Shown here: positions 35,684 through 60,071 of the stretch, in pieces
Numbering within the stretch: the stretch's first letter is position 1
How the letters are laid out: every line of letters begins with the position of its first letter
The notes under the pieces: model-generated
Databases searched by the model: none
Told to the model about the DNA's origin: nothing
Seen by the model: only the letters and a program-made list of their open reading frames with translations
Translations under genes and position numbers: made by a program
Assembly: GCA_036898135.1 (NCBI GenBank)
Contig: CM072522.1
Location: forward strand, 124,001-188,000
DNA length: 64,000 nucleotides
DNA from: Oncomelania hupensis
Taxonomy: Eukaryota > Mollusca > Gastropoda > Littorinimorpha > Pomatiopsidae
Direction: 5' to 3'

Positions 35684-35917
35684 CCGACCAGCGACCCCCA
35701 GCACTCACAACCTGCTAGCCATCGCCATCGCGGAAGAAGGAGAAAGCATGGAGACGAATGCAGTAGAGTATCCCATGCATTCAAAAGAAACCCACAAGGA
35801 CGTGATACTCAACGGAGACCTAGCCGCCAAACAGCAACAGCAAGTACTACAGGTCATTCGACAACATCAGACTGTGCTCACAGACCGACCAGTGAGGACA
35901 GACCTCGTCGAAGTAAC

Positions 35918-41619: not shown

Positions 41620-41808
41620 AGAGATTGTAATAATGGGCTTGGAACCCCATTGTTTTTCTGACACCCTTTTATTGCAATTTATGGCTGTTTTATGAGCTTT
41701 TTAAAAAGCGCTCCAAAGCACTCTGGGAATCCGCAATTTGCTAAATATAATACATATTTGTATATCTTGCGTCTTTGGTTAAAACAAAAAAAAAATTACA
41801 ACCCTTCT
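41620..41808 (+). repeat. Polinton left terminal inverted repeat
   Basis: 189 bp that match the reverse complement of 56,948-57,133 with about a dozen differences, from AGAGATTG to ACAACCCTTCT. The two copies keep the same order of landmarks (GGAACCCCATTG or CGAACCCCATTG, CTGTTTTATGAGC, ATATCTTGCGTC). Confidence 0.95.
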
Positions 41809-41827
41809 ACATTATGGTTGTATAACA

Positions 41828-42064
41828 TTACACATTAATATCTGCTGGAATGATCTTTTGTTTAACAAGATAGTCCCGAGTAAATAACGATAATGAAAAG
41901 ATACCAACCAGTTTACCAGCATCTGAAAGATCCATTTTTCCTAATTCAATAGGTTTTATTTTTAAAAGAGATTTTGCAATCATAGCATAAGCTGTATTTA
42001 AGCCCACTAAGACAACACTATGGTATCCAAGATTAACAATTGTTTGTTCATATGGTACACTCAT
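41828..42064 (-). CDS. Small hydrophobic Polinton protein
   Basis: 78 residues starting MSVPYEQTIVNLGYHSVVLV. Residues 12-35 are hydrophobic and could span a membrane. A second, weaker hydrophobic stretch (LVGIFSLSLF) follows near 52-61. It is the outermost gene, 20 bp inside the left inverted repeat. Small membrane proteins of this size are common in Polintons and adintoviruses, but I do not recognise a named family. The ATG follows ATATAAAAA, as in its neighbours, which supports the start. Confidence 0.6.
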   Translation of the reverse strand: MSVPYEQTIVNLGYHSVVLVGLNTAYAMIAKSLLKIKPIELGKMDLSDAGKLVGIFSLSLFTRDYLVKQKIIPADINV

Positions 42065-42098
42065 TTTTTATATATAATAAAAAAATAATAATAAATTA

Positions 42099-42545
42099 TT
42101 ACTGCATTGAAAACACATCTAATGATGGCTTCAATGATGGAGATGATTCAATTTCTTTTTCTACAAGTGGTTTTGGGGGTTTCTGTTTATTTTTTCCTTG
42201 GCGGTATTTATATATTATGTACCCACTTGCACCCACTACACCGGCTATACATAAATAATATATGTTATTTGCAGATTGTACTGGTTGTATTGGTTGTATT
42301 GGTTCTTCTTTATTTGTTGTTAATGTTTGTTGCATTATTGTTTCTTCTTTTGGTGATTCCTTTTTTCCTAATATGTTTGCTTTTGTTTGTCTGTTCCATC
42401 TATGTAACTTGTTAAATTCTGCTAACTTCTTTCCAGCTGCAATTCTTCCTGGGCTCTTTTGTTTAGTGACTGTCACTGGGTTCTGTTGATTCTCTGAATT
42501 CTTCACCTCCGTCTCCTTCTCCATCTCCGGATTGGAAGAGTCCAT
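42099..42545 (-). CDS. Basic Polinton protein with one membrane segment
   Basis: 148 residues. The N-terminal half is charged and holds the basic motif SPGRIAAGKKLAEFNKLHRW near residues 31-50, a type of motif seen in small core or membrane proteins of Polintons. A hydrophobic segment (IYYLCIAGVVGASGYIIY) near residues 95-112 is followed by a lysine-rich tail. The gene overlaps the end of the upstream gene by 83 bp in another frame, both on the minus strand. DNA condensation or membrane attachment would fit the composition, but the function is inference. Confidence 0.65.
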   Translation of the reverse strand: MDSSNPEMEKETEVKNSENQQNPVTVTKQKSPGRIAAGKKLAEFNKLHRWNRQTKANILGKKESPKEETIMQQTLTTNKEEPIQPIQPVQSANNIYYLCIAGVVGASGYIIYKYRQGKNKQKPPKPLVEKEIESSPSLKPSLDVFSMQ

Positions 42546-42990
42546 TTTTAATAGCAGAGAAATTTATGTGTTGAAAAGTAATTAGCCCGGCTGAAAATGG
42601 GGTCAACAAGCTTCCAAACTTATAATACAAATTTCTTGATGCCTCACTAATCCCATTAACAATAACTGGATCTTTAATCAAATCATCAAATAAATCATTC
42701 TCACAATCTAAAGTAACAAAGGTCGACACAGCTTTGGTATATAACTTCACAATCGAACGCCCTAAACTTTTAACCATTAAAGCGCCGAGAACTTTATCAT
42801 ATTTATTATGTAATATAATGATGTCTTCTGGCCTCAGTCTTTGCACTTGTTCAGGTGTTAAGTCAACACCGAGATAATACTTTGACTTTCCGGAAGCTAC
42901 TAATGCAACCAGCCTGTCTCTTTTCTCATTGTCAACACCTGTAACTGTAACATTAATAGCTTCTTGCATTAACAAGTCATCACAATTCAT
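42463..42990 (-). CDS. Conserved Polinton protein of unknown function (175 aa)
   Basis: 175 residues starting MNCDDLLMQEAINVTVTGVD. Features include SGKSKYYLGVDLTPEQVQRLRPEDI, a loop ending YDKVLGALMVKSLG and a hydrophobic C-terminal half (YYKFGSLLTPFSAGLITFQHI). An acidic tail comes last. I recall this gene shape from invertebrate Polintons, where it has no known role. It shares a 36-bp divergent promoter region with the plus-strand gene at 43,027 and overlaps the next minus gene, so the three left-end minus genes probably form one transcription unit. Confidence 0.65.
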   Translation of the reverse strand: MNCDDLLMQEAINVTVTGVDNEKRDRLVALVASGKSKYYLGVDLTPEQVQRLRPEDIIILHNKYDKVLGALMVKSLGRSIVKLYTKAVSTFVTLDCENDLFDDLIKDPVIVNGISEASRNLYYKFGSLLTPFSAGLITFQHINFSAIKNGLFQSGDGEGDGGEEFRESTEPSDSH

Positions 42991-43026
42991 TTTAAATACA
43001 AATAAAATAAAAAACTAAATTAAAAA

Positions 43027-43452
43027 ATGGCTGGTGCTGCAATGGTGCTTGGTTCTGCTGCTGTAAATGCCTTAGCCTTTTCAGGATCAAATTATTTGTT
43101 TTCAAAACTGGACAGTAAAGAAGAATCAAAACGGCATAACTTAGCAATAGAAAAATTACAACAAGATCAGGCCGAATACGAGAAAAACAGACTAATGCAG
43201 CTTGATTTTGTTAATAAAGGATTGAAAGAAGAAGGTCATGCTGATAAAACATTCGAAGACGTTGATGAAGCTTTGCACCAATATTATTTATTCACTGGCG
43301 CGACACTACCTTCATTAAAGCAGCCAGTGTTATCTGATTACTACACACCTAACATTGCACCTACAATGTCAGAGACCGGAGAATTAATTTTAATTGTGTT
43401 TGGAATAACAGTAGTTTATTACCTCGTTAAACAAAAATATAAATCTAAATAA
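43027..43452 (+). CDS. Polinton membrane protein with coiled coil (141 aa)
   Basis: 141 residues. An Ala/Gly-rich start (MAGAAMVLGSAAVNALAF) is followed by a helical charged region (EESKRHNLAIEKLQQDQAEYEK) likely to form a coiled coil. A C-terminal hydrophobic segment (ELILIVFGITVVYYLV) near residues 119-135 ends in KQKYKSK, like a tail-anchored protein. The stop codon is three bases before the integrase ATG, suggesting that the two are expressed together. No named family is recognised. Confidence 0.6.
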   Translation: MAGAAMVLGSAAVNALAFSGSNYLFSKLDSKEESKRHNLAIEKLQQDQAEYEKNRLMQLDFVNKGLKEEGHADKTFEDVDEALHQYYLFTGATLPSLKQPVLSDYYTPNIAPTMSETGELILIVFGITVVYYLVKQKYKSK

Positions 43453-43455
43453 AAT

Positions 43456-44430
43456 ATGACTTCGCGTTTGTCTAGATTATATTATTCTAAATCCGGATAT
43501 TGGAAAGGGATGACGGCAGTTAATAAACTAGTAGAAAAGACTGGCTTGTCAGCAAACACAGTTAAACAATGGTTATCGAAGCAAGCTGTATGGCAAATCT
43601 ATCTTCCACCCCCGAAGAAAATAATAAGACCAAAATTTGAAAACTCCAGACCAAATGACACACACCAAATAGATTTGTTATATCTTCCCCATGACAAAAT
43701 ATATAGAAAGAAATACAGGTATGCCCTTACTGTTATTGATATAGCTACCAGGTTTAAAGACGCGCATGCTCTTAGGACAAAAAATTCAGCTGAGGTCGCT
43801 CAAGCCTTAAATGCGATTTATTCAAGAGGGCCTCTAAGGTTCCCTAGACTTATTCAATGCGATGAAGGGTCTGAATTCAAAGGAGCTGTTAACCAGCTTT
43901 TGTTAAAACATAATGTAACTGTTCGAAGAGGAGTTGTTGGATTGCACAGATCACAGGGTATTGTAGAAAACTTTAATCGGCAACTGGCAGAAAGATTATT
44001 CACTTATCAGTATTCAAAGGAACTCTTTACTGAAACCACTAATACAGAATGGGTTGTTAGGCTGCCTCGAGTTTTAAGGGAAATGAATTCAGAACCAACC
44101 AGAGTTACAGGATTAAAACCAGTTGAGGCTATTAAAAAGAAACAGATTGTTGTTACCGTTTCAAAGCCTGGTCAGCCGGATCTAACTTTGATGAACAAAA
44201 CTGTTAGATACCTTTATCAGCCTGGAGAAGTTGCTAATGACACTAGAAGGCGAGCTACAGACCCAATTTGGTCATTAAGCGTTTATGAAGTTGACAGAGC
44301 ATTATCTACTGATCCGCCTGTATATTATTTAAGACCGAGAAGCGATCGTAGAACACCACAAAGAAACTTTGTAAAAGAAGAACTTCAGATTGTTCCACCA
44401 GACACAGAGCCATTAAGATTTCCTAATTAA
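43456..44430 (+). CDS. Polinton integrase (retroviral-type DDE recombinase)
   Basis: 324 residues. It would cut and join the element ends into host DNA in the nucleus. An N-terminal helix-turn-helix-like region (GLSANTVKQWLSKQAVWQIYL) precedes the catalytic core: Asp73 in HQIDLLYLP, Asp136 in QCDEGSEFKG and Glu171 in GIVENFNRQLAERL, spaced as in the D,D-35-E family. A C-terminal domain near 240-310 has GEVANDTRRRATDPIWSLSVYEV, the SH3-like or chromo-type tail region of Polinton integrases. Length is normal and all three catalytic residues are present, so the protein looks functional. A 59-bp copy of its 3' end reappears at 44,952-45,010. Confidence 0.95.
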   Translation: MTSRLSRLYYSKSGYWKGMTAVNKLVEKTGLSANTVKQWLSKQAVWQIYLPPPKKIIRPKFENSRPNDTHQIDLLYLPHDKIYRKKYRYALTVIDIATRFKDAHALRTKNSAEVAQALNAIYSRGPLRFPRLIQCDEGSEFKGAVNQLLLKHNVTVRRGVVGLHRSQGIVENFNRQLAERLFTYQYSKELFTETTNTEWVVRLPRVLREMNSEPTRVTGLKPVEAIKKKQIVVTVSKPGQPDLTLMNKTVRYLYQPGEVANDTRRRATDPIWSLSVYEVDRALSTDPPVYYLRPRSDRRTPQRNFVKEELQIVPPDTEPLRFPN

Positions 44431-44448
44431 GAAAATAAAAGACTAAAA

Positions 44449-44874
44449 ATGACGGACACAGAAAGGTTCTTTAAGGAGTTAGAAATGCTTTTTGATTCTC
44501 CCCACTTTCATATGTTAAAAGATGAACGCTGGAAAATCTTTTTTGAATGCAGACTATATGATCCAGATATTTATAATGGTTTTGACCCCTTCACTGGACA
44601 ATATGAAATAAATGAAGATTACAAAGTTAAATGCAAAAGTGACTTCTCAATAGTCTTTCATAAACTTACAAAAGAAGAATACAACAAAAGTGACTTGTAC
44701 CCAAAATCATATTACTTTAAATATTTTTGGTTACATTTTATTAAACAAGTTCGCAAACTAAATCCTCATGTAGTCAAACAAACTGTTTGTGATTGTGGAC
44801 CCGACTGCGAATGTGATCATGACTGTGAGTATGATTGTTATTGTTTTTGCAAATGTGATGGCTTTTCATATTAA
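44449..44874 (+). CDS. Polinton protein with Cys-rich C-terminus (141 aa)
   Basis: 141 residues, ATG after GACTAAAA. The first 110 residues are rich in aromatic and charged amino acids (ERWKIFFECRLYDPDIYNGF, SYYFKYFWLHFIKQVRKL). The last 30 hold ten cysteines in closely spaced pairs (CDCGPDCECDHDCEYDC, then CFCKC), which could bind metal. It starts 18 bp after the integrase stop. It is not an adenovirus-type protease, as no His-Trp/Asp/Gln/Cys-Gly order is present. I do not recognise a family. Confidence 0.6.
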   Translation: MTDTERFFKELEMLFDSPHFHMLKDERWKIFFECRLYDPDIYNGFDPFTGQYEINEDYKVKCKSDFSIVFHKLTKEEYNKSDLYPKSYYFKYFWLHFIKQVRKLNPHVVKQTVCDCGPDCECDHDCEYDCYCFCKCDGFSY

Positions 44875-44951
44875 AGTTAGGGTTAATTTTTTTTTTAATT
44901 CAATTTATTCAGTTTAAAGTTGTTTTAAAATACTATTTAAAGTTTTGTTAT

Positions 44952-45010
44952 AAGAAACTTTGTAAAAGAAGAACTTCAGATTGTTCCACCAGACACAGAG
45001 CCATTAAGAT
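44952..45010 (+). repeat. 59-bp duplicate of the integrase 3' end
   Basis: Identical to 44,361-44,419, the last coding part of the integrase gene, but followed by AAATGAAC instead of the TTCCTAATTAA end. It has no ATG and is not translated in a long frame. Confidence 0.9.
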
Positions 45011-45071
45011 AAATGAACTATAATCATCACAACTATTACTTACCTTCAACCTTTTTTTTTTGACTTAGTGA

Positions 45072-45238
45072 CTTACATCTAACTTAATTAAGTCGACTTT
45101 TAAAAAAACTTATAACTTACAATAATTAAATTATAAAAGAACTTACTTACTTACATCTAACTTAATTAAGTCGACTTTAAAAAAAAAACTTATAACTTAC
45201 AATAATTAAATTATAAAAGAATTTACTTACTTACATAA
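45072..45238. repeat. Two-copy tandem repeat, period about 78-80 bp
   Basis: The unit CTTACATCTAACTTAATTAAG...TTATAAAAGAA starts at 45,072 and again at 45,150, with a partial third start at 45,230. It fills the gap between the convergent Cys-rich gene and the ATPase gene, where both transcripts should end. Confidence 0.85.
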
Positions 45239-45842
45239 GTATTGTATAGCCAGTTGGTTGGTCAGTTTTTAATAATAATTTTAAGTGCTTGCCTTTTTTT
45301 AGCTGTTCTTTTAATTTAGTTCTTTCCTCTTTTGATTCAATTACGTCATTTTCTTTTAAACAGTTATCAAAGCTGTCTCGATCTTTGCAATAAAACAGGC
45401 ACACGAATTTTACTTGTTCTCTAAAATCCTTTAATATCGAATTAAATTTCTGCGTGATTAACCAGACACTAATTTTCACATGGCGTCCACTGAAAGCCAG
45501 CTTGCTCAATATGTTTCGTTTTAATACAATATCTTTTTCTGCACTGCAATCATCGATTAAGAATAACGTATTACCCTCATTCTCAAACAGGTTATAAAAA
45601 TACGTTAAATACTCATTGAGCTTGCCATTGGTATTTACAACAAAGATATTTTCATCTGTCCAGACATACTTACGATCTAAGTAGGTTTTATTATATTGAA
45701 TAGTTGGGCAAAAAATTACTATATAATCAAAGTGTCCTGCGTAATATTTTTCTAACAAATCCAGAACAAAAACGGTCTTTCCGCATGACGTCATGCCAAC
45801 GATCATTCCGCAATGAGGATCACGAGGTAACAAAGAGGTCAT
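45231..45842 (-). CDS. Genome-packaging ATPase (FtsK/HerA, A32-like)
   Basis: 203 residues. It would drive DNA packaging into capsids. Walker A is GMTSCGKT at residues 16-23. Walker B is LFLIDDCS at 93-100. A downstream LITQKFNS near 128-135 fits the sensor-type polar motif. Size and motif spacing match the ATPases of Polintons, adintoviruses and virophages. The ATG is two bases beyond the stop of the capsid gene on the same strand, so capsid protein and ATPase are probably co-expressed. The start is supported by TATTAAAA directly before ATG. Confidence 0.92.
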   Translation of the reverse strand: MTSLLPRDPHCGMIVGMTSCGKTVFVLDLLEKYYAGHFDYIVIFCPTIQYNKTYLDRKYVWTDENIFVVNTNGKLNEYLTYFYNLFENEGNTLFLIDDCSAEKDIVLKRNILSKLAFSGRHVKISVWLITQKFNSILKDFREQVKFVCLFYCKDRDSFDNCLKENDVIESKEERTKLKEQLKKGKHLKLLLKTDQPTGYTILM

Positions 45843-45844
45843 TT

Positions 45845-47122
45845 TTAATATACCAAATCTTTTAATCTTCCATTTTCAATGTTTAGCTGAGCATCCATAA
45901 TTATATACATGTATACTGTAACTGATTCTGACCTAGCACTTGCTTCCCTATGCAATTCAATTGTTATACCATCTGTTCCGTTTTCAATTCTTCTTCCAGA
46001 TCCATGAAGTTCATTGGTGGGTATTGTTTGAAAGTCTAACCACAACGCAAACTTATTCACCAGATAATCTTGCAGTCTTGTGTCATGCAAATGAAGATCT
46101 TTAGAAATCAAATCCACAGTGTCAGTTCGTAATCTACCTCCACCCAAGATTTTCCTAATCTCATCAAACTGTTGAAATCCCATCATTCCATTCGCGAATA
46201 ATTGATTAGGTTTACCTTCAATCACAACAGACGCTTTTGAAATATTAGGATTAATAAAATTTTCGCTATCACGATTGTAATTAGATTCTTTCACAAACAA
46301 CAACAGTACACCTTTAAAACTTCGAGCAGGTGAATTTATGTTGATGGTCCAAAGTGCATCTAATAAATCTTTATTAAATTGTCTGTAGCGAACGATCCTA
46401 TCATAATAAATTGCTAGGTTGTCATATTGTCCCCTGATCATCCTACTGAGTTCAGCGTGAGTGACCACTTCATATTCAAGCGCGATGTCTGTAATTGTAT
46501 ACCTAGCATCATTGTCAGAGCTAATTACTACTTGAGAATAATCATTGAAAATAATTTCGTAAGAAAGCCTGTCGTTAAATGAACCTTGATGAAATGGCAG
46601 ATGACTGTGTAGCAGTTCAAAATCGAGTGGAAAATAAAACCTATTTTTGTATACAGCAGCTAATGCATTTTCACCTTTGTTAGAAACGACAGCATCGCCA
46701 GCTTTGATTCGAAGTTTGGCCACATTGGCGGCTTGAATCCCCTGACCAACTAAATCTTCCCTTTCATATTTACTCAGCCACAGATCTGTGTAACAAAACA
46801 AAACACCGGCGTCATCGATACTTTGGATTTCTCGCCCATCAAGTTTAATAACCATTCTTTTAATTATAGCTCTGCCTAGATTGTTGACTATGGTTCTGTT
46901 AGGATCGTCGTCAGAATTCAGACTAATTTTAAATCCTAGTTTAGGACTGCCCGGAACTATTACATCATCAGGACCTAAATTTGGAAATCTTATGGTTAGT
47001 AGCTGATTAGGCTCTATGCTGCTTGGATTGTTTGTAATAATTATTGTGCTTTTCTCACCTTTGATGCCTAAAGGCGTCCTCAATCGGCGTGTAGGGTCTA
47101 ACAAGTTTCCGTAGCTTTGCAT
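45845..47122 (-). CDS. Major capsid protein (double jelly-roll, hexon-like)
   Basis: 425 residues. This is the family called PY or hexon in Polintons/adintoviruses, which forms the capsid faces. Early conserved blocks are IRFPNLGPDDVIVPGSPKL, RTIVNNLGRAIIKRMVIKL and IQSIDDAGVLFCYTDLWLS. Later blocks include YKNRFYFPLDFELLHSHLP and LSYEIIFNDYSQVV. The alternating beta-type pattern fits two jelly rolls. No break is present and the length is usual for the group. It is transcribed toward the ATPase and divergently from the gene at 47,155, with 32 bp between the two ATGs. Assignment rests on recognised family blocks rather than a structure comparison. Confidence 0.88.
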   Translation of the reverse strand: MQSYGNLLDPTRRLRTPLGIKGEKSTIIITNNPSSIEPNQLLTIRFPNLGPDDVIVPGSPKLGFKISLNSDDDPNRTIVNNLGRAIIKRMVIKLDGREIQSIDDAGVLFCYTDLWLSKYEREDLVGQGIQAANVAKLRIKAGDAVVSNKGENALAAVYKNRFYFPLDFELLHSHLPFHQGSFNDRLSYEIIFNDYSQVVISSDNDARYTITDIALEYEVVTHAELSRMIRGQYDNLAIYYDRIVRYRQFNKDLLDALWTININSPARSFKGVLLLFVKESNYNRDSENFINPNISKASVVIEGKPNQLFANGMMGFQQFDEIRKILGGGRLRTDTVDLISKDLHLHDTRLQDYLVNKFALWLDFQTIPTNELHGSGRRIENGTDGITIELHREASARSESVTVYMYIIMDAQLNIENGRLKDLVY

Positions 47123-47154
47123 TTTTAATGTAATAAAAAAAATTATATTTAAAA
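47123..47154. promoter_or_regulatory. 32-bp bidirectional promoter region
   Basis: The whole space between the divergent ATGs of the major capsid protein and the 425-aa membrane protein is A/T with two C/G bases. It ends on each side in TTAAAA directly before ATG. Any promoter and leader for both genes must lie here or inside coding sequence. Confidence 0.55.
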
Positions 47155-48432
47155 ATGGCAGAAGGCGGTGAAGCTCCGGATGAAGTGTTTAAACCTGATT
47201 TACCTAATAAAGACCATGACGTCACACTGCTTTCTATGGTAGGAGATGACATGAGCCAAACAAGACCGAGTATAGGAGAAGAATTACGTCAAGTAACTGA
47301 AACCCAAAAAGCCAGAAAAATCAATAAATTTTACAATTACATCGGGCGTGAGTTACCTGATTATGTTAGTCCCAGCGACTTCGAACTAGACAAAAATAAT
47401 CACTTGTTTATAAACACTATTGTATCCGGTAAAAAAGTGAGAGTACAGTTAACTATGTTAAAGAATCCTGATAAATTTTATGCGTGGTCTACTTTGAAAA
47501 CTAAACTCCCAGTGACTGTAATACGATCATTGGGGCTTTCCGATAATAGAGTGCCAGCGTTGCATCGCCAAGCAGTAGCTTCACTTCAACGAATAGATGC
47601 ATCGTTAAGTTCAGAAATAGAACTACAAGACTTAACTAACTTAACTAGTTCTGCATTAGAAGTAAATAAAGAGTTAACAACCTTACAAACAAATGAGGAC
47701 ACCAATATTGATCAGGTTATGGAAACTATCAATGACCCACCATTTTTGCCACTGCGTGAACTTCAAGGCTTAGATAAAGCTTTACAATCTGTGAGAGGGG
47801 AGACAATGATGAATTTGGCCAAGCTCGGTGAGCTCGACAAACATATAGAAAAACAAAAAAATAAACTAGCAGAAGCTGATGACGCGAACTTAAGCATTGA
47901 GGTAAAACAGATGATTCAAAAAAGGCTCGCAGACCTTTACACAGAACGCGCGGCAAGGCTAGAAGCCTTATCCATAAACAGAGAAAAATTAATAACTAAT
48001 TTCGCCAGAATAAAAGAAACGGTGCATAAAATTTTACACGAAGACACTACACTTGCAGAAAGAATTCAAACACTGTTCAGAGAGCAAGGTGTTACAATAT
48101 TTAGCATTCTTACAGCTGTTGGGATGACAATAAGCACACTAGTCTTAGCATTGACTAGAACCGTAGGCATTGGTGGCGGTGGACCTGGCGGATCTGGTGG
48201 ACCTGGCGGTAGTCCGGTTAAAGACTGGATTAAAAAGACTTTACAAAGCATAGCTAACTTATTGAAACGCCTAGGTGACAAACTTGTAGACGCACTTCCA
48301 GGAATATTAGGTTCTGTATTTTCATGGATATTTAATACTGCTTCTAAAGTTGTGGTTTGGGCGTCTGAGCATCTGTGGTCTTTGTTTATAATAATATTAC
48401 TCTGGTTACTTAAAATAGTAAATCCCAATTAA
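47155..48432 (+). CDS. Polinton membrane/coiled-coil protein (PW type)
   Basis: 425 residues. Residues about 35-145 look globular (KINKFYNYIGRELPDYVSP, KVRVQLTMLKNPDKFYAWS). Residues 195-310 are helical coiled coil (LDKHIEKQKNKLAEADD, LADLYTERAARLEALS). The last 110 residues carry FREQGVTIFSILTAVGMTISTLVLAL, a Gly-rich linker (GGGGPGGSGGPGGS), amphipathic helices (KDWIKKTLQSIANLLKRLGDKL) and a final hydrophobic stretch. The GVTIFSILTAVGMTIS-linker-KDWIKK tail is widespread in invertebrate Polintons and suggests a membrane-active or virion protein. The exact role is unknown. Its 3' end overlaps the convergent gene by 27 bp. Confidence 0.8.
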   Translation: MAEGGEAPDEVFKPDLPNKDHDVTLLSMVGDDMSQTRPSIGEELRQVTETQKARKINKFYNYIGRELPDYVSPSDFELDKNNHLFINTIVSGKKVRVQLTMLKNPDKFYAWSTLKTKLPVTVIRSLGLSDNRVPALHRQAVASLQRIDASLSSEIELQDLTNLTSSALEVNKELTTLQTNEDTNIDQVMETINDPPFLPLRELQGLDKALQSVRGETMMNLAKLGELDKHIEKQKNKLAEADDANLSIEVKQMIQKRLADLYTERAARLEALSINREKLITNFARIKETVHKILHEDTTLAERIQTLFREQGVTIFSILTAVGMTISTLVLALTRTVGIGGGGPGGSGGPGGSPVKDWIKKTLQSIANLLKRLGDKLVDALPGILGSVFSWIFNTASKVVVWASEHLWSLFIIILLWLLKIVNPN

Positions 48433-49632
48433 CCCAGCAAACAATAAACCCCCTGTAAGCGCTAGACGTGAAACCCCATGATCAGTTACCGGCAGGCCTG
48501 GCAGACTTGGCAGGCTTGGAAGTGGTGGCGAACTTAAAGGTTCATTATTAGGCCTAGCAGTAAATACCGTATTTGCTGTATTCACTGTATTCACTGTATT
48601 CACTGTATTTATTGTAGGATTGTAGCCTATATGAAACTGAGGGTCGGCAATCACTATATTGTTGTTGTAGTTTGATATAGTTCCTATCCTAAGCTGAAGG
48701 TCTGAAGGCAACATATACAGTCCTAAACCTATTACGTAATCTACTTTCGATCTAGCATACTTTAAAGTGTCCTGATATCTTTTAATACTTGCGGGCAAAT
48801 CTACTGCCGAATTAATAGAATCTTCAATGTTGGCTAAAAACTGCTTTTGTGCATCGAAGCTAGTTCCTTCCCCAATGATATTACTTCGTGTTTCTGCTTG
48901 AGACCCCAGAATGCACCACGCATACGTACGAATAGATTCATTCAGCCTTTCCACCCCACTTTGAGTAAATCCGTTTGATGTGTCTAATATAAAAGTGCTG
49001 TATGCTGCACTTTGTTTTTGTCTGATATACAGTAAAGGAACCTGGCTGTTGTGGTTAAATGATGTAAATCCAGGTACGTAAGGCCCCGTGTATAAATTAC
49101 CTACAGCGTATCTAAATAAAGTTCCCATCCCGTGATTGAGGTCTAGTTTTTGTCTGAAGTCTGTTTTAGTATCAATTCCGAATTCATTGCACAACCTTTG
49201 ATACGCTTTCTTGTCAAAGCCGTTGTTAAAGGGATTAAAGTTTTTGTCAGTAGGTAACGGAGCCTGAAGTTCAGACAACACCCGCCTCACTTGATAATAC
49301 AAATGGAACAGATAAATAGACTTCAACATGGGATCTGGGTGATTAAGGTGATGAACGTAAGAAACTCCACAACCAGTTGTAGCGCATGACACGGCAAAAT
49401 TAATTTGATTCTGAAAGAACTGCATACCCCTGTTGTTTAGCCATTGGTTAGCTAAAAAGTCGCTCGTAATGTCTGGGTTGAGGTAATGATCAAAAATATT
49501 ATGGGGGATAGTTTCGAAATGGACGTTGGCTGCCACAGCTATTGTCAGCTTGGTTAGGTCGACTGCTTTTTCGTAATAATAAGGCCCTGTAGTATACTTT
49601 GCAGCTTTGTTATATTTATAAGGCGCATACAT
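48406..49632 (-). CDS. Polinton protein with C-terminal membrane anchor (408 aa)
   Basis: 408 residues starting MYAPYKYNKAAKYTTGPYYY. It is mostly globular, with conserved-looking blocks ANQWLNNRGMQFFQNQINFAV, SCATTGCGVSYVHHL, SIRTYAWCILGSQAETRSN and KVDYVIGLGLYMLP. Near residue 343 an NTV unit repeats (NTVNTVNTVNTANTV), coded by a 9-bp tandem repeat at about 48,570-48,610. A Pro/Ser/Leu-rich stalk follows, then a last segment (LALTGGLLFAGLIGIYYF) that could anchor it in a membrane. A virion surface or membrane role is possible but unproven. The ATG lies only 20 bp from the divergent penton-like gene. Confidence 0.7.
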   Translation of the reverse strand: MYAPYKYNKAAKYTTGPYYYEKAVDLTKLTIAVAANVHFETIPHNIFDHYLNPDITSDFLANQWLNNRGMQFFQNQINFAVSCATTGCGVSYVHHLNHPDPMLKSIYLFHLYYQVRRVLSELQAPLPTDKNFNPFNNGFDKKAYQRLCNEFGIDTKTDFRQKLDLNHGMGTLFRYAVGNLYTGPYVPGFTSFNHNSQVPLLYIRQKQSAAYSTFILDTSNGFTQSGVERLNESIRTYAWCILGSQAETRSNIIGEGTSFDAQKQFLANIEDSINSAVDLPASIKRYQDTLKYARSKVDYVIGLGLYMLPSDLQLRIGTISNYNNNIVIADPQFHIGYNPTINTVNTVNTVNTANTVFTARPNNEPLSSPPLPSLPSLPGLPVTDHGVSRLALTGGLLFAGLIGIYYFK

Positions 49633-49652
49633 TTTTATTATATTAAAAAAAT
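49633..49652. promoter_or_regulatory. 20-bp bidirectional promoter region
   Basis: All 20 bases between the two divergent start codons are A or T. Neither gene can have a leader longer than about 20 nt without overlapping the other gene's coding sequence. Confidence 0.5.
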
Positions 49653-50351
49653 ATGTTTGTAACTTTCGAATCTGTAAAATCAGGTGTGCCCATTGAACTT
49701 CAGCATCCTATTGACAACAAAAACAGGGACCTTAACGTAATCCTTCACGAAATATTCTACACGGTTAAATGGTTAAATATTAGTCATGATCTAAACAACA
49801 ACTGGATAATGATTAATAAAAAAAGGCACTTTATTCATGCCGGCTATTATGACTTCTGCAGACTTACTGAAGAATTGTTTAAACCTCATTCCATTGAAGC
49901 AAAAATGAACCCTGCAAACTTGATAGTAACTTTAACTTTCCATAAAAACCAACATAAAGACATTACCAGCGTTACACTTGCGCCAAAGCTGGCAGAAATA
50001 TTAGGTTTCCCTGGCAATGAATTATCTTTATCTGACAGCTCCAGCACTGTCGGCAGTTCTATAAGATTTATTGGTTCAAACCCTATGAATTTGTTAATTA
50101 ATAATAGATTGTTTGTGTACCTTCATCAACTGAAGACATCGGAAAACTTAGTAAACGGAACTCCTAGTACATTGCTAAGGATAATCTCAACTCAGAGAGA
50201 ATCTTACTGCGATCCTGTTTCATTAAAATTTCTACCTCAAAAACGCCACTTAAGTCAGGACTATCATACTAGTTTATGCTTCAAAATAACTAACCAAAAC
50301 AACGAAATTGTAGACTTTGAAGATCTTACAATTATTCTTGAGATAAAATAA
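49653..50351 (+). CDS. Penton-like minor capsid protein (PX type)
   Basis: 232 residues. Polinton PX proteins are single jelly-roll proteins at capsid vertices. Family-like features are the N-terminal IPIELQHPIDNKNRDLNVILHE region, FIHAGYYDFCRLTEELF, SVTLAPKLAEILGFPG in the middle and a beta-rich end (SLKFLPQKRHLSQDYHTSLCF, DLTIILEIK). The ILGFPG block after a polar strand is a landmark of this group. Length is usual. It leads a three-gene plus-strand run (49,653, 50,371, 51,277) with short gaps. Confidence 0.8.
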   Translation: MFVTFESVKSGVPIELQHPIDNKNRDLNVILHEIFYTVKWLNISHDLNNNWIMINKKRHFIHAGYYDFCRLTEELFKPHSIEAKMNPANLIVTLTFHKNQHKDITSVTLAPKLAEILGFPGNELSLSDSSSTVGSSIRFIGSNPMNLLINNRLFVYLHQLKTSENLVNGTPSTLLRIISTQRESYCDPVSLKFLPQKRHLSQDYHTSLCFKITNQNNEIVDFEDLTIILEIK

Positions 50352-50370
50352 AGTTTAATTTTAAAATACA

Positions 50371-51243
50371 ATGTCAATCGGCCCTCAAATTCCAGTAACC
50401 TGTCCTACCATTGAACTGAAAGACTTAGCAGACACAATCGACTTTGATGCAAATGCTATTGTTGGGTCTATTTACGGTTTCGAATTTACACAAAATGGAT
50501 ATTATAAACGAGCGCTAGTGCCGGCAGTGCCTGAAGTGCCGTCAGTGCCGCCGTCAGTATTGCCAGAAAAACCATCTATTGATCAGCTAAAGGATTTTAA
50601 TGCCGGTAAAGTAGATCCCGATTTTAAGTATGCTATTACTAAACGAGAAAATATCTGGTCTTTAACACCTGTAGACACAGAATTAGATTGGCTTATTAAA
50701 TTCAAGTGCGAAAGCCCTTACACTTTTATGGGACCAGACAATAAATTTAAGAAAATTATTAACGCCGGGCCTATGTTAGTTAGTCTAGTGCCGGATGAAA
50801 ACAATCGGGAAAACGTAGAAGTCAAAGCCTACAAAAAAAGCAACTATGTTTTACATAAGCGTGAAACCGCAGGGAAAAATGTCAGACTTGTTCTGCAGCC
50901 TCCTTTACAGCTAGGTAGTGCAGCTATGATAGTACTGGACATAATTGCTCACAGGCCTACGCAGAGAAATTTTAATGTAATTCCGCAAGTGTCTCTAAGT
51001 TGGGTTGATTTAGATGAGGATCCCAGACGAGTTACAGTATTTATGAAAAAAAGAGAAAATGAAAATCAGTTTTCCGTATTTACTTCCTCACCCAAGATAA
51101 CTTTTGTCCCTGTTCCAAATCCTATTGACAGAATAGCGCAAATTAGCCTAGACAACGTAGATCTGTTAGCATTTTATTTCAGCGATCAGATATTTTCTGA
51201 TAGTCAAATAGAATATTTTGCTAATAAACTAAAATCAAGTTAA
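50371..51243 (+). CDS. Polinton protein of unknown function (290 aa)
   Basis: 290 residues starting MSIGPQIPVTCPTIELKDLA. A Val/Pro-rich linker (VPAVPEVPSVPPSVLPEKPS) near residues 51-70 separates a short N-terminal part from a larger, beta-looking domain (WLIKFKCESPYTFMG, VRLVLQPPLQLGSAAMIVLDI, VSLSWVDLDEDPRRVTVFM). No membrane segment, zinc site or catalytic pattern is seen. The place directly after the penton gene and the linker-plus-beta layout would suit a vertex spike or fibre, but this is only a positional guess. Confidence 0.6.
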   Translation: MSIGPQIPVTCPTIELKDLADTIDFDANAIVGSIYGFEFTQNGYYKRALVPAVPEVPSVPPSVLPEKPSIDQLKDFNAGKVDPDFKYAITKRENIWSLTPVDTELDWLIKFKCESPYTFMGPDNKFKKIINAGPMLVSLVPDENNRENVEVKAYKKSNYVLHKRETAGKNVRLVLQPPLQLGSAAMIVLDIIAHRPTQRNFNVIPQVSLSWVDLDEDPRRVTVFMKKRENENQFSVFTSSPKITFVPVPNPIDRIAQISLDNVDLLAFYFSDQIFSDSQIEYFANKLKSS

Positions 51244-51276
51244 TTATTGTTAACCCTTTTTTTTCACACTAAAAAT

Positions 51277-51864
51277 ATGACGACAAAATTGTATCCTGCT
51301 ATAGTAGAAGCAGTAGTGGATGAACAACCAATGCAACCCAGTGCTCCAACGTTAGACTTAAGTAATGTTCAAACGTTCAGGCTGGAAGAAATAAGAAAAG
51401 TTAGGACTCAAATTGAATCAGATATCCAAAAGTACTCTAGATGCAGACGACGGTATTCCGGCGCTTATAGCGGAATAAATTACGTGTCTACTGGTCTAAA
51501 TGTTATTAATGCTGCGGAAGCTGCTGCCAGCATGGGATTATTGGTGACTGGAATCGGTATACCAATTAGTATTGGATTAGGGGTTGCTGCCGGATTATCT
51601 TCAGTGATGTCAGTTTTACTTGGTGTAATTAATACTAAAGTATCTAAGAAACTAGAAAAACACGACCTCATTTCTAGCCTGGTGATAGCTAAACTTACTA
51701 GCATGAACTTAATAATTTCAAAAGCTCTAGAAGACACTCAGATTACAGACCAAGAGTTTGTAATTATCCAGCGAGATTTTGAAGAATATAAAAAGTTGAA
51801 GCACGACATACAATCTAAATCTAGGTCTGCACCTGTTAATGTTGAAGAAATAAAAAAAAATTAA
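51277..51864 (+). CDS. Polinton protein with glycine-rich hydrophobic core (195 aa)
   Basis: The ATG at 51,277 (MTTKLYPAIVEAVVDEQPMQ) is preferred over an upstream TTG because it follows CACACTAAAAAT, as in the neighbours. A charged region (RLEEIRKVRTQIESDIQKYS) leads into a hydrophobic, Gly/Ala-rich stretch (MGLLVTGIGIPISIGLGVAA) around residues 80-120. A helical tail (KALEDTQITDQEFVIIQRDF) follows. This pattern recurs in invertebrate Polintons. It is reminiscent of membrane-penetrating proteins, but the function is unknown. It converges with the polymerase gene 80 bp downstream. Confidence 0.7.
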   Translation: MTTKLYPAIVEAVVDEQPMQPSAPTLDLSNVQTFRLEEIRKVRTQIESDIQKYSRCRRRYSGAYSGINYVSTGLNVINAAEAAASMGLLVTGIGIPISIGLGVAAGLSSVMSVLLGVINTKVSKKLEKHDLISSLVIAKLTSMNLIISKALEDTQITDQEFVIIQRDFEEYKKLKHDIQSKSRSAPVNVEEIKKN

Positions 51865-51944
51865 TAGAAGAAGGGAGACTACTGGGGCGGAAGGAGCAGC
51901 TAGATGCTTTGAAGAAAAAGCTCGGTGCTTCAGAATAAATACAG

Positions 51945-54900
51945 TTAACATTTACTCAAGCCTTCCAGGACTTCCACCTTATTCATAGTCGCAGTCGCTG
52001 TTTCTACCTGTAATTTATAGTGACCTAGAGCGTATGCGAACTCCTTAGTTACTCTTATTCTCTTTGTGTCATTAGCGCATAATGTTTTTTTGGTCGTCAC
52101 AGCAGTGGACACTATATGGTTTTTAGACTTTATAGTTGTGTTAGGGTATGGTTTAACTTCTTTCCCATCTAAGGCTTCCAGGTAGTTTTCGTGTCTGATA
52201 TCTCTGTTTTTTATTGCAGCTTTTTGGATGCCTTTTGCTTTTGAAGATTCCCCCGATTCGTGTTTAATACTGTACTGCTTAGATCGCAGTCCTGCGTATT
52301 CTTCTATTAGTTTCCCGTTCATTTCATCTTTCATCAAACCTATTTTCTTTTGGTTTGCTTTGCTGTACAAAGGGTGAGTTTCAGGATAGTCACTAGTATC
52401 GTAATGTTGTAGTTCCGATTCTAAGTCTTTATAAATGTCTTCAGTAGGGATGTCTAGTATAAGGGAGTCTGTGTCTGTGTATAAAACTCTGGCCTCCGGG
52501 TATTTAGGTTTAAAGTAATCGTAGTAAAATTCGAACATTAATAATTTAGAAAGGTCGAGAATAGTCATCCCCATAAACACTGGTTTGTCTAGATTAACTT
52601 GCGTGGTTTTCATGGTAACTGCATACAGGGAGTCATGAAACTCTTTGTAACCAAGGTATTGAGGCTTAGATGTTAATTTAATCGCTTGATTGGGTGAGGT
52701 AATTAGCCTGACATCTTTTCGCTTGTATGGGTTCTCCATAGTTTTACCAAAACAGCTGTTATTCAGCAGCTTAAAGAAATCTTTTTCAAACGTAGATTGC
52801 GCTTGTTTTCTGAGCTCTGTGTTTTTATTGATGTACCCGGCCAAGACATTCGTTTGTTTAAAGAATAAAAGCTTGTGAATCGCTGTGCACTTCATGCCGT
52901 GTCTGATGTAGAACTGCAGGTTTCTGTAGTGGCAGACGTAATTAGATTTATTATAGAGGTTGGGAATAAGTTTAAGTTGCTTGTCTGTACCATGCAATCT
53001 TTCTGGTGCTAATGGGTAATCATTATGCAGGTCGTGTAAAGCATTGGGATACTCTAGGTCAACTTCGACAATAAACCCTATAGTATGATCTTTAGGGTGA
53101 TTTAAAATACTGTTTAACCAAGTCAAGTTTGCGGGGTTTGGATTAACAAGTAATTTGAAATCTGAAACCGGTAAAAGCTCACTCATTGCCCAACCGTATA
53201 AATTGTTGGCGTCAAAGTACATTATATAATTAGATTTCTGCTAGGGGTCATAGTGCTTCAGGTATTTATTGTTGGCTTTGCAATAATTATGAGCTGCCAT
53301 GCTTATTCCTCCACGAATGCCCGACTCAATCATTGTCATCATTACCGGGTCAGTTATGAGATCGATTTTAGAACCGCTAAGTTTTAAGAAAGCATCCCAA
53401 CTCATTCCTGGCGAAGAAATATAATGAGAAGGGTCGAGGGAGTAATGATGTAAACTCGTTTCTCTGTATTTTTCAAACACATCAGCCAACAAACAGACGT
53501 CGGCTTTCAAATATATGTCGTGGTAGTCACCAAGGTTTTTACATCCGAGTGCATTCCAGACATTCTGGGCGTGTTCATAATCGGTAACAGTTATGAAACT
53601 TTTATTGAGTGAAGAATAGAAGTTCTCTTTAGGTGGTAATTCTAGTTCTTCAAACACTTCCCAAGAATCCATGTATTCATAAGGATACACGCCTTTCCGA
53701 ATAAGTGTAACATCTGGAAAATATTTGCTAGTGATAGGATAGCTGGGTAAGTTCTTAGCTAGTGTTTCTAAACTGGAAGACAAATGTTGAAAGCTGTCGT
53801 AAAACTTTAATTTATTCAGAGTGAAAGTTTTATATTTTTCTTCTGTCTCGGCAATACATGACACTTTGTATGCTTTCGTCACTGCCTGCATGATTAAATG
53901 GGAGTCGTAATTTCGAAGATTGTGAATGAAAATAGGGAGAGAGAAATGTTTGATTCCATATTCCAAGTTGCATTTCTGATGAGCTGCACCTCTAAATGCC
54001 CCTGTTATGTGACAATGATCTCTCACTCTTTGGGTCTTTGGGTCCTTTGTGTCCTTCGGGTCAAACTCTTTATTACAAATGTGGCAATGTGTAGCTGCTT
54101 TAAAATTATGGGAGTCAGATTCAGTAAATATCATAGGCACCGGATTATCTAGCTGCAATAAACACAATTTGTATATTTTGTTCATCTCATCTAAGAACTT
54201 CCGAGCTGCGTCAGGCCCTCTGTAAATTACTGGCTCTGTATGTTGTCCGTCGGCTCTAACAACTACATACCCGAAACTGCAGACTTCGTGAAGGTGTGTG
54301 AGGAATGAATTAGGCGCACAAAATCCTTGTGGGCCTTGATATTTTAAAATCAATGATTCGAAGTCGGCATAAACTATATAAGGCTGCTTGAATTGTTTGT
54401 TGATGTTTTTAAAATATACTTGAGAACCCGGCTTTGGTAACACAAGACGGGTTTGAATATCTGTCATGGTTTTGCATATTTTAGAGTGCTTGTCAGCCAC
54501 TTGGAGATTAGAGACTCTAGTTAAACAGCGTCTGCACAAATATTGTTTGCCATGATGTTTTGAAGTGTGTCCTAATAATCTAGATATGTTTCGTATCAGT
54601 GTATAATGTTGCATGCTAGGATCTTGCGGGTCTGTTATTAGTAAAAAATCGACGTGGTGATTGAGGTCTGAAAACGATGGGGCATTAGGAGAGATTCGTA
54701 AAGGCATAAGTTTTGATTCAGGGTCCCAAACATATACATTGACTGTTATAGGAGAGTTTTGTGATTCAAATTTGTCAATGGCGTCAAGGCTAACAGGAAA
54801 ATTAATGTCTTTGAGATTTAAGTTCGTTACTTTATCTTTGTATAGCGCCACCCTTTCGGGATGTTGTTTCGACTGAATAGGATATAATTTAGCCAAAACA

Positions 54901-55391
54901 CACCACAAAAAACATTTGTCGTCAGTGTTCTTAATATTCAATACAGCCTTCTTGTCAAGAATTTCTTTGGGAAGAGGGATATAAGATTTTCCTTTGATTG
55001 GATTATACTTTGCAATGTTCAGTTCTAATGATTCTAAATTTCCTTCTGTCCACCCAGACCCTTTCAAAGTTGCACGCTCAATGCTGTCTTGTAACTGATT
55101 GATCAAGATGTTGTTATAAGCATTGTCTAGGTCTGAAGATTTTAACACTTCAATTTGACTTGAAGAAATCCACACAGTCATCGTTTCATCAATACTGCCG
55201 GGTTTAATAAAAGTTATTTGAGCGTGAATGCGTATTTTAACAGGGGATTTGAAAGTAAAATTGTTAAGTACAAATTCGTAATTATTATAAACAGATTTAA
55301 TAACATTTTGACTGTCAAGAATAGGGATTTGTAAAGTTTGAAAGATGTCTTTAAACAAAGGAGATTGTGAAAGACTTTTTGTGTCCGTCAT
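51945..55391 (-). pseudogene. Protein-primed DNA polymerase B with in-frame amber codon
   Basis: About 1,149 codons on the minus strand from the ATG at 55,391. It would replicate the element with a protein primer. The 3'-5' exonuclease motifs are YADFESLI (about residue 339), NYDSHLI (about 492) and YLKADVCLLADVF (about 626). A zinc/HNH-like insert (CHICNKEF, RVRDHCHITGAFRGAAHQKC) sits near 436-470, as often in this group. After the stop come polymerase motifs A (DANNLYGWAM), B (KLLNNSCFGKTMEN) and C (LYTDTDSLIL). TAG at 53,241-53,243 falls seven codons before the motif A methionine; the frame is unchanged on both sides. Unless read through, it separates exonuclease from polymerase. Confidence 0.93.
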
Positions 55392-56117
55392 TTTTATACT
55401 GACGCAAAACTTTAAATTAAAACATAATTAATTGAAAACTGACTTTTAAAAAAACAATTAACTAGGGAATTTCATTCACGCAGACCAATACAGTCAAAGG
55501 GAAGCAACCGCGACTTTACTTATGAATGCGTAATAACGTTTTTATATCTCAGACTTGTCATGCATCACTGCATTGCCGTCACTACACGCTTTACCACTGT
55601 GTAAACATTAACGCGGCCTTTCAATCAATAAACCGTGGGACAAAGAAAAATGACTGCATCGTTTAACATAAACACTATTTGCGCTGTCTACGCTTTCGTC
55701 GTCTGATAAAGTCAAATCAACAAAGCCTTCCACTGCAATGTCACTTTAACCTTTGTGCTGTCGACGTAAACATGCCGTTCCCCAATCAAACACTGTTGGC
55801 GTGGTGCGACTGTTTATTTCTAATTCTCAAACTCTCACACATTCAACAGTTGCTTCAAGTACTGGTTTAACATAATCACTGTTTGAGCTGCCAAAATTTC
55901 ATCATCTAATAATGTCAAATCAACATAGTCTTTTAATATTTCAATACTCGCGTCATTTGTATAAGTCGCACAAAAAATAAAAAACTTTACAACATAATAC
56001 TGTCACGGTCCTAGCCCGATCGATGTAAACATGGCCACACAATCGTGACGTCAGGCAGGATTGTGGTGTTTGAGTACTGTGATTTCGCCTAAAATGATTA
56101 AAGAAGGGTTGTAATTT

Positions 56118-56166
56118 TTTCGATGTTTAAAAAAGAATATATTATATTTACATTCCAACCACCTGC
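56118..56166 (+). repeat. 49-bp direct repeat, copy 1
   Basis: TTTCGATGTTTAAAAAAGAA...CCACCTGC occurs here and at 56,428-56,476 without visible differences. Upstream of this copy, AGAAGGGTTGTAATTTTTT (from 56,102) repeats the inner end of the terminal inverted repeat. Confidence 0.9.
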
Positions 56167-56182
56167 GGCATGTATCACAATT

Positions 56183-56220
56183 GGTCTGGTATAGTTGTTT
56201 GGTCTGGTATAGTTGTTTGG
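56183..56220 (+). repeat. Tandem 18-mer
   Basis: GGTCTGGTATAGTTGTTT is present twice in tandem, followed by GG. Confidence 0.9.
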
Positions 56221-56261
56221 GATTATATAGATTAATTTTCGCAGTACAAATATCAAGCGTT

Positions 56262-56332
56262 AATTGCTGCGAGGTTAGTGCAGCGGACTTGTAATTGAGG
56301 AGGCGCGGGTTCGATTCTGTGTTGTGCCTTAA
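56262..56332 (+). other. tRNA-like sequence (SINE head or tRNA relic)
   Basis: GGTTAGTGCAGCGG resembles a tRNA D-arm/A box, and GCGGGTTCGATTC is a full T-arm/B box about 35 bases downstream, closing a plausible T stem. The anticodon stem between them does not pair well and no good acceptor stem is seen. This is therefore a degenerate tRNA or the start of a tRNA-derived SINE, not a functional tRNA gene. Confidence 0.4.
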
Positions 56333-56427
56333 TTTTTTTTTCATGTTGTAAATTAATTTACTTCCATGTGTGTTTGTATGTGTGTGCGAGTGTGTTTGTG
56401 CGCAAATAGTTTATACATTTACATTTA

Positions 56428-56476
56428 TTTCGATGTTTAAAAAAGAATATATTATATTTACATTCCAACCACCTGC
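56428..56476 (+). repeat. 49-bp direct repeat, copy 2
   Basis: Second copy of the sequence at 56,118-56,166, followed by CACATG repeats. Confidence 0.9.
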
Positions 56477-56947
56477 ACATGCACATGCACACAATAGGCG
56501 ATAAATATACGGGCTAGGATTACAATTACCGTGTTGGAATTTAAAATAAACAATACCACTATCCTGTGTTTGTGTGTTCAGGCGAATAATGTATAGATAA
56601 TAAAAAGAAAAACAGATTATTTATAGTGCTACAGGAGAGTGCGTCACCAAGAATGCATTTCAAGGTTACCTGGGTGCATGAGGAAATATGTGTTTATGTG
56701 TCTGGGTGAATGTATATACTGATTATTTATAGTGCAACAGCAGTGCGCATGCTCACAATTATGTCCTATAGTTTGTGTGTCAAGGCTAGCTTAGTGCGTG
56801 AGAAAATAGTAAACTCATACAGTATTTTATTTAGGGCCTACTACAAACCCAGCTTAATGTGGGCTTGTGCGTGCTTGGTGTTGTGCAGGGAATGAATGCG
56901 TTTTTGAAGTGTTTGATATCTGAGTCTGATATGCCTCAAATAATTGA

Positions 56948-57133
56948 AGAAGGGTTGTAATTTTTTTTGTTTTAACCAAAGACGCAAGATATACGAATAT
57001 GTATTATATTTAGCAAATGCCGGATTCCCAGAGTGCTTTGGCACGCCTTTTAAAAGCTCATAAAACAGCCATAAATTGCAATAAAAGGGTGTCAGAAAAA
57101 CAATGGGGTTCGAAGCCCATTATTGCAATCTCT
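56948..57133 (-). repeat. Polinton right terminal inverted repeat
   Basis: Reverse-complement partner of 41,620-41,808. Differences include a G/C change, AAAAGGCGTGCC where the left has AAAAAGCGCTCC, and a shorter A run, so the repeats have diverged slightly since insertion or were never identical. Confidence 0.95.
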
Positions 57134-57299
57134 CGAGGATACATTACAACAAAAGGATATAAGAATGTTCCCTTTGTTTATTTTGGCATCATTCTGCACC
57201 TTTTTTTAAAATTATATAAGCCAAGCCTTTATAATTTTTATGTCACATTTATGTCATAAGAAAACAGGGAAAAATGTATCTATATCTCTCTCTTTCTCC

Positions 57300-60071
<2,772 letters not shown>

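What the first reader, a model, noticed from the sequence alone, without database searches (positions are those of the whole stretch)
41620..57133. Nearly intact Polinton with readable ends and target duplication
Both inverted repeats, the flanking CGAGG and every core virion gene except a protease can be read, and only one coding lesion is visible. Such complete copies indicate recent activity of an endogenous virus-like element in this lineage. The exact TSD is 5 bp, or 6 bp (CGAGGA) if one base is shared with the inverted repeat.
Basis: partly seen in the sequence, partly recalled or inferred. Interest (0 to 1): 0.75.

Follow-up and report, generated by a model that had tools for sequence, protein, structure and literature searches.

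The report
Young Polinton with swappable gene cassette
A nearly complete, fairly recently inserted virus-like element (a Polinton) sits in a 1.45-billion-base genome that holds at least dozens of close copies, whose capsid gene is under selection and which differ by an exchangeable gene cassette; the kind of element is known, and the detail about its copies is the useful part.

Summary
The element is real (41620-57133): inverted repeats identical at 178 of 190 columns, integrase, packaging ATPase, double-jelly-roll capsid protein, and a protein-primed polymerase cut by one in-frame stop. Among 13 other copies in the host genome with both ends found, 11 have an exact 5-bp target duplication, one is ambiguous, one has none: 5 bp, not 6, is the rule. 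Seven of 8 mismatches between this copy's two repeats also segregate in other copies, so they do not date it. The stop is private (0 of 10 readable copies); capsid dN/dS over 14 copies is 0.07. 'Recent activity' is supported.

Beyond the finding: a 591-bp cassette with a homologue-free gene, bounded by a 59-nt repeat, is present in 9 and precisely absent in 11 of 20 other copies; flanking alleles suggest that recombination brought it into this copy. Remnants of another accessory gene show a loss. Protease not recognised, penton not identified, empty site untested. A known kind of element, unusually well resolved.

The parts
41615..41619 (.). target site duplication, left copy CGAGG
   Evidence: 5-bp rule in other copies
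41620..41808 (+). left terminal inverted repeat
42099..42545 (-). 148-aa protein, unassigned
   Evidence: no Pfam family at curated cut-off
42463..42990 (-). 175-aa conserved protein; relative in L001
   Evidence: 32.5% over 120 aa, E 4e-18
43027..43452 (+). 141-aa protein with a hydrophobic C-terminal segment, unassigned
43456..44430 (+). rve-type integrase
   Evidence: PF00665 3.7e-10; dN/dS 0.20 in its C-terminal part over 20 copies
44361..44419 (+). first copy of the 59-nt direct repeat (integrase 3' end)
44420..45010 (+). 591-bp cassette, present in 9 of 20 and absent from 11 of 20 other copies sampled
44449..44874 (+). cassette gene, 141 aa, cysteine-rich tail, no homologue found
44952..45010 (+). 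second copy of the 59-nt repeat, identical to the first
45063..45236 (.). 80-bp tandem repeat, about 2.2 units, AT-rich
45231..45842 (-). FtsK/A32-like packaging ATPase
   Evidence: PF04665 9.6e-15
45845..47122 (-). major capsid protein, double jelly-roll
   Evidence: dN/dS 0.07
47155..48432 (+). 425-aa protein with two hydrophobic segments, unassigned
48406..49632 (-). 408-aa protein with a hydrophobic C-terminal segment, unassigned
   Evidence: no relative in IMG/VR
49653..50351 (+). 232-aa protein, unassigned (penton candidate by position only)
50371..51243 (+). 290-aa protein, unassigned (penton candidate by position only)
51277..51864 (+). 195-aa protein with a hydrophobic segment, unassigned
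51945..55391 (-). protein-primed DNA polymerase B gene, in two ORFs
53241..53243 (-). in-frame stop, private to this copy among 10 readable others
55659..55733 (-). remnant of an accessory gene found in some other copies
   Evidence: tblastn E 1e-5
55898..55954 (-). second remnant of the same accessory gene
   Evidence: tblastn E 2e-5
56947..57133 (-). right terminal inverted repeat
57134..57138 (.). target site duplication, right copy CGAGG

Best explanation
A fairly recently inserted, now slightly damaged copy of a Polinton (Maverick). Inferred mechanism, from what is established for the families of its genes: linear DNA is replicated from its inverted-repeat ends by a protein-primed polymerase, packaged by the ATPase into a double-jelly-roll capsid, and inserted by the rve integrase with a 5-bp staggered cut. 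Shown here: ends, 5-bp duplications, core genes, purifying selection on capsid and integrase between copies, a private stop, mixing of alleles between copies, and presence or absence of a cassette bounded by a 59-nt repeat. Inferred: that copies arose by replication and reinsertion, possibly through particles, and that recombination between element lineages carried the cassette into this copy's backbone.
For: Ends and duplication; 5 bp exactly in 11 of 13 other copies with both ends; integrase and ATPase; capsid homologues and fold; polymerase pieces; stop absent in 10 of 10 readable copies; MCP dN/dS 0.07, 95% 0.03-0.12, 14 copies; 8 of 9 own-private MCP changes at third positions; 7 of 8 repeat mismatches shared with other copies; cassette in 9 of 20; diagnostic alleles.
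Against: Protease not recognised and penton not identified, so particle formation rests on the capsid, ATPase and selection alone. One of 13 copies with both ends (C4) shows no duplication, and 25 of 38 copies gave no usable pair of ends. Copies were picked as best matches to this one. The single-loss reading of the cassette is not excluded: the tree has no fully supported branch, 1 of 11 non-carriers (C11c) has the carrier base at 44409 and 1 of 11 (C17) has carrier bases at 45378 and 45381. Without indels and with the strict gene set, the lesion-count argument is weak (P 0.016-0.054).
Confidence: 0.9

Rival explanations
1. The mixture of alleles and the cassette's spread arose inside the host genome by gene conversion between integrated copies, not in a replicating pool of elements.
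For: At least dozens of 96-100% similar copies are present to convert each other; all four combinations of bases at 44250 and 44319 occur, which conversion could also give.
Against: Capsid dN/dS of 0.07 asks for continued function; private capsid changes of this copy are nearly all at third positions (8 of 9).
Confidence: 0.25
2. The cassette is ancestral; this copy simply kept it, and the non-carriers lost it once by recombination between the two 59-nt repeats.
For: Precise absence leaves one 59-nt copy in 11 of 11 non-carriers; this copy could sit at the base of the non-carriers, whose inner branches are unresolved.
Against: This copy shares its whole left haplotype (44157-44409) with C3b, C15a and C2b and its whole right haplotype with C2a, i.e. 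lies inside the non-carriers; all 9 other carriers have A at 44409 in the first repeat copy, this one G; its two repeat copies are identical, those of 9 of 9 other carriers differ by 1-5.
Confidence: 0.35
3. The element is an old fossil and its near-intact genes are luck.
For: 4.3% mismatch between the two repeats would by itself suggest an old insertion.
Against: 7 of 8 mismatches also segregate in other copies; 10-36 lesions expected in all 13 genes if they had arisen after insertion, one seen; own-private changes 16 of 3115 sampled sites (summed).
Confidence: 0.04
4. The polymerase stop is read through as a programmed signal.
For: TAG followed by C is a leaky context (recalled); both flanking frames are open.
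Against: 17 of 17 relatives aligned are single proteins of 1103-1245 aa and 0 of 10 readable copies have a stop there.
Confidence: 0.03

Closest known systems
Vertebrate Mavericks (PMC8097293; seen: abstract, sections 7 and 13, passages)
   Same: About 15 kb, inverted repeats with an AG-rich start, pPolB, integrase, ATPase, capsid genes, accessory regions at the flanks, purifying selection on core genes.
   Different: They are reported with 6-bp duplications, a protease, and two modules on opposite strands pointing to the centre; here 5 bp, no protease recognised, and ATPase beside MCP with strands alternating.
Polintons of diverse eukaryotes (PMC4028283; seen: abstract and section 3 part 1)
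   Same: Core set; the paper found the protease identifiable in 74% and the ATPase in 83% of 72 Polintons, so a missing protease is not unusual.
   Different: Penton (PX) not identified here.
Adintoviruses (PMC11071296; seen: passages)
   Same: Polymerase with an OTU-like region (described for Polinton pPolB in passages of PMC11071308), retrovirus-like integrase, animal hosts.
   Different: Defined by mutually recognisable hexons; the one named adintovirus protein among the 50 best fold matches is 11% identical; no reference hexon was compared by sequence.
Polinton-like viruses of protists (PMC12220804; seen: passages)
   Same: Integrated copies with inverted repeats; duplications there given as about 4-6 bp, 6 bp typical for rve integrase.
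   Different: Organism names given for polymerase relatives here are molluscs and an octocoral (best 120 listed); the long IMG/VR relative L002 matches only in the polymerase.

Membership tests
Polinton/Maverick | Long terminal inverted repeats | tested here: met
   about 190 bp, 178 of 190 columns identical
Polinton/Maverick | Short target duplication (6 bp in vertebrate Mavericks; 4-6 bp in PLVs) | tested here: met
   5 bp in this copy and in 11 of 13 others with both ends; not the 6 bp of vertebrate Mavericks
Polinton/Maverick | rve-type integrase | tested here: met
   PF00665
[quoted passage not shown]
   two pieces, 68% and 78% identical to one relative; 3767 homologues of the N piece
Polinton/Maverick | FtsK/A32-like packaging ATPase | tested here: met
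   PF04665
[quoted passage not shown]
   model pLDDT 71; Foldseek to PBCV-1, iridovirus and mavirus capsid proteins, E from 1e-13, TM about 0.5
Polinton/Maverick | single jelly-roll penton protein | tested here: inconclusive
   no Pfam match; one candidate modelled, pLDDT 30
Polinton/Maverick | adenovirus-like cysteine protease | tested here: inconclusive
   Pfam at E<=10 on 9 unassigned ORFs plus polymerase N piece: none; a loose motif scan hit only the cassette gene's cysteine-rich tail
Adintovirus | hexon recognisable by BLASTP against adintovirus hexons | not tested
   no reference hexon sequence compared
Adintovirus | integrase with C-terminal chromodomain | tested here: inconclusive
   Pfam at E<=0.01 reports only rve

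The most novel reading that the evidence does not exclude
The host genome is a snapshot of a recombining animal DNA-virus population: integrated Polinton copies sample lineages that exchange segments and an optional accessory locus (a gene between two copies of a 59-nt integrase-end repeat, plus a variable right-hand accessory region), much as temperate phages exchange optional genes, while the capsid gene stays under strong purifying selection. Such Polintons would then have been spreading as viruses in this lineage within the last few million years or less.
Probability: 0.35. Interest if true: 0.75.

Novelty: new member of a known kind. Interest (0 to 1): 0.5.

Why it matters
Whether Polintons of animals make virions is open: the abstract of PMC8097293 says their particles have not been observed. 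A genome with many close copies, a selected capsid gene and exchangeable accessory genes is a place where the question can be approached by observation. It also gives a caution: mismatch between the two inverted repeats, which can be taken as a sign of age (PMC12220804 cites repeats at least 97% identical as suggesting recent integration, passage), misleads here, since 7 of 8 differences are variants shared with other copies.

Tried and rejected
Rejected: a 6-bp duplication sharing one base (other copies show 5 bp). Rejected: inverted-repeat divergence as a clock. Rejected: protease hidden in the cassette gene (141 aa; only a loose motif hit in its cysteine-rich tail). Rejected by eye: cassette as a retroposed insertion (no A-tail). 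Rejected: my first idea that the 59-nt duplication arose just before this insertion; the 9 other carriers sampled share it with 1-5 differences.

Led nowhere: MCP in IMG/VR; 408-aa protein and integrase in IMG/VR; MCP in prokaryote contigs (only L001); MCP against PDB by sequence (3 chance-level hits); PHROGs (only weak hits to one protein); homologues of the cassette gene; model of the 290-aa protein; comparisons with L002; Pfam on the accessory protein of another copy. The cassette gene and the polymerase gene share the stretch around their start codons (21 of 22 nt, E 4e-4; 0 of 500 dinucleotide shuffles of the 81-nt head); but 1 of 300 plain shuffles of the whole insert scored higher (44 against 42). 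Not explained. The insert's 3' part against the polymerase leader is weaker (5 of 500 shuffles as good).

Two papers were not held. Literature searches; of most papers I saw only the listing, so I do not claim that such a cassette polymorphism is not in print.
Full report
What is there. The stretch 41620-57133 (15,514 bp) is bounded by inverted repeats: 190 alignment columns, 4 gap columns, 8 mismatches (first alignment). The ends read AGAGATTG and CAATCTCT, and CGAGG stands directly outside both. Thirteen genes can be read, the polymerase in two pieces. The 13 frames scored (the polymerase by its N piece) look coding against the element's noncoding DNA: lowest 0.098, highest of 90 noncoding blocks -0.090; five of the 13 trained the model. 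All 13 start codons have A at -3.

Gene identities. Integrase PF00665, 3.7e-10, and packaging ATPase PF04665, 9.6e-15. The 425-aa protein has 963 homologues at E<=0.01 among 7998 scored candidates, the nearest 98% identical; [quoted passage not shown] The polymerase pieces match one continuous 1116-aa relative at 68% and 78%; the 17 relatives aligned are single proteins of 1103-1245 aa. Where the 120 listed hits carry organism names these are molluscs and an octocoral; the host itself is unnamed. Protease: none recognised. Penton: not identified. The 175-aa protein has a relative in L001, a short contig that also holds capsid, ATPase and polymerase matches.

The host genome. One search placed the window in an assembly of 1,449,719,270 bp in 428 contigs and gave 1308 first-look candidates for the left end; the 40 scored, this copy included, match at 96-100%. 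A 901-nt inner stretch gave 947 first-look candidates and 40 full-length matches at 97-100%, plus 39 short ones to the tandem repeat. Scored counts are lower bounds and first-look counts are loose; the true copy number is not known.

Target duplication. Ends of 38 of the 39 other scored copies were fetched. In 24 of 38 no right end passed the cut-off in the 2 kb searched (one of them, C2b, has a weaker one), and in one the left end did not pass. Of the 13 with both ends, 11 show an exact 5-bp duplication, not longer: CCCTT, TTATT, CTGTG, CGAAT, CCCAG, ATAGT, GTACA, CTTTT and AGAGG, GACGT and CAAAC (left flank, right flank read). In CTGTG and CTTTT a second register of the end was possible and gave 3 bp. 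One copy lies in an AG microsatellite and is ambiguous; one (C4) shows none. Vertebrate Mavericks are reported with 6 bp, PLVs with about 4-6 bp.

Age. If the repeat differences had arisen after insertion, 10-36 coding lesions would be expected in 12,801 coding nt, depending on assumptions, and one is seen. With only the genes that have homologues and no indels the argument is weak (P 0.016-0.054). A direct test agrees: at 7 of 8 mismatched positions both bases occur among the left repeats of 37 other copies (38 looked at, one unreadable); only position 140 is private. The arms of other copies differ about as much or more (for example 5 of 159, 12 of 185, 21 of 179). Own-private changes in the sampled stretches are 1 of 189, 9 of 1278, 2 of 361, 0 of 784 and 4 of 503, my sum 16 of 3115 or 0.5%. 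At assumed rates of 1e-9 to 8e-9 per site and year this is at most about 5 to 0.6 million years. Eight of the nine private capsid changes are at third positions (P 0.001), so most of them probably predate insertion.

Selection. Capsid dN/dS over 14 copies is 0.07 (0.03-0.12), integrase C-terminal part over 20 copies 0.20 (0.08-0.44), cassette gene over 9 copies 0.67 (0.25-3.10, not distinguishable from 1); this copy's cassette gene against the 9 others gives 1.2. All 13 other capsid stretches lack stops and 2 of 13 have a frameshift; 8 of the 13 cover only about 1006-1030 of 1278 nt. The polymerase stop is absent in 10 of 10 copies readable there; 3 of 13 stretches missed the site. Copies intact in these stretches therefore exist.

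The cassette. 44420-45010 (591 bp) follows the integrase 3' end and ends with an exact second copy of its last 59 nt. Of 20 other copies sampled, 9 have it and 11 lack it, with one 59-nt copy left. Its 141-aa product has no homologue in the protein search or Pfam; all 9 other versions lack stops and 1 of 9 has an uncompensated frameshift. In a tree of flanks the 9 carriers stand together and this copy stands with the 11 non-carriers; the label needs 2 changes (0 of 500 shuffles as low), but no branch is fully supported. In the first 59-nt copy 9 of 9 other carriers have A at 44409, this copy G, as have 10 of 11 non-carriers. At 45244 this copy has G, like 11 of 11 non-carriers and 0 of 8 readable carriers; at 45378 and 45381 it has the base of 10 of 11 non-carriers and 0 of 9 carriers. 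At 45031 it has a base seen in 7 of 9 carriers and 0 of 11 non-carriers. So the cassette probably entered a non-carrier backbone by recombination, with ends near 44409-44420 and within 45031-45244, where an 80-bp tandem repeat lies. Its left haplotype equals that of C3b, C15a and C2b, its right haplotype that of C2a. All four combinations at 44250 and 44319 occur: exchange is general, or mutation recurs. A single loss in the non-carriers remains possible.

The right-hand region. Between polymerase and right repeat, 10 of 13 copies share with this one only the repeat or part of it in the stretches seen; three (C11, C346, C4) share more. C346 has a frame of at least 271 aa there, with relatives in three further stretches (L028, L019, L024); this copy keeps two short remnants. 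A FVDLTLSDDE stretch in it resembles a SUMO-interacting motif (recalled, not tested).

Verdict. A genuine Polinton, young, with one private coding lesion and a lost accessory gene, in a large family whose copies have exchanged segments. Known in kind. The new detail is the 5-bp duplication, the exchangeable cassette and the caution about dating by inverted repeats.

Noticed in passing
44449 and 55391: The cassette gene and the polymerase gene share 21 of 22 nt around their start codons; a plain-shuffle control was not clean (1 of 300 higher).
   Followed up: partly
55694-55932: Two 36-nt direct copies (83% alike) lie in the two accessory-gene remnants.
   Followed up: partly
56087-56166 and 56425-56476: Partial inner copy of the inverted repeat and a 52-nt direct repeat near the right end: the subterminal region looks rearranged.
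   Followed up: no
8813-9811, 15229-17748, 20965-23613, 35684-37243, 59910-61571: The window outside the Polinton is rich in retroelement ORFs (reverse transcriptase, integrase; 8 ORFs scanned).
   Followed up: no
L018 470-1378, L060 1313-1903: Right-end stretches of two other copies hold ORFs that look, by eye, like the retroelement at 15229-17748 of the window.
   Followed up: no
57285-57437: A (TC)n(TA)n microsatellite lies just outside the right end.
   Followed up: no
L002 9314-13258: IMG/VR contig with a 1314-aa polymerase relative (33% and 42% in two pieces) and otherwise unrelated genes.
   Followed up: partly
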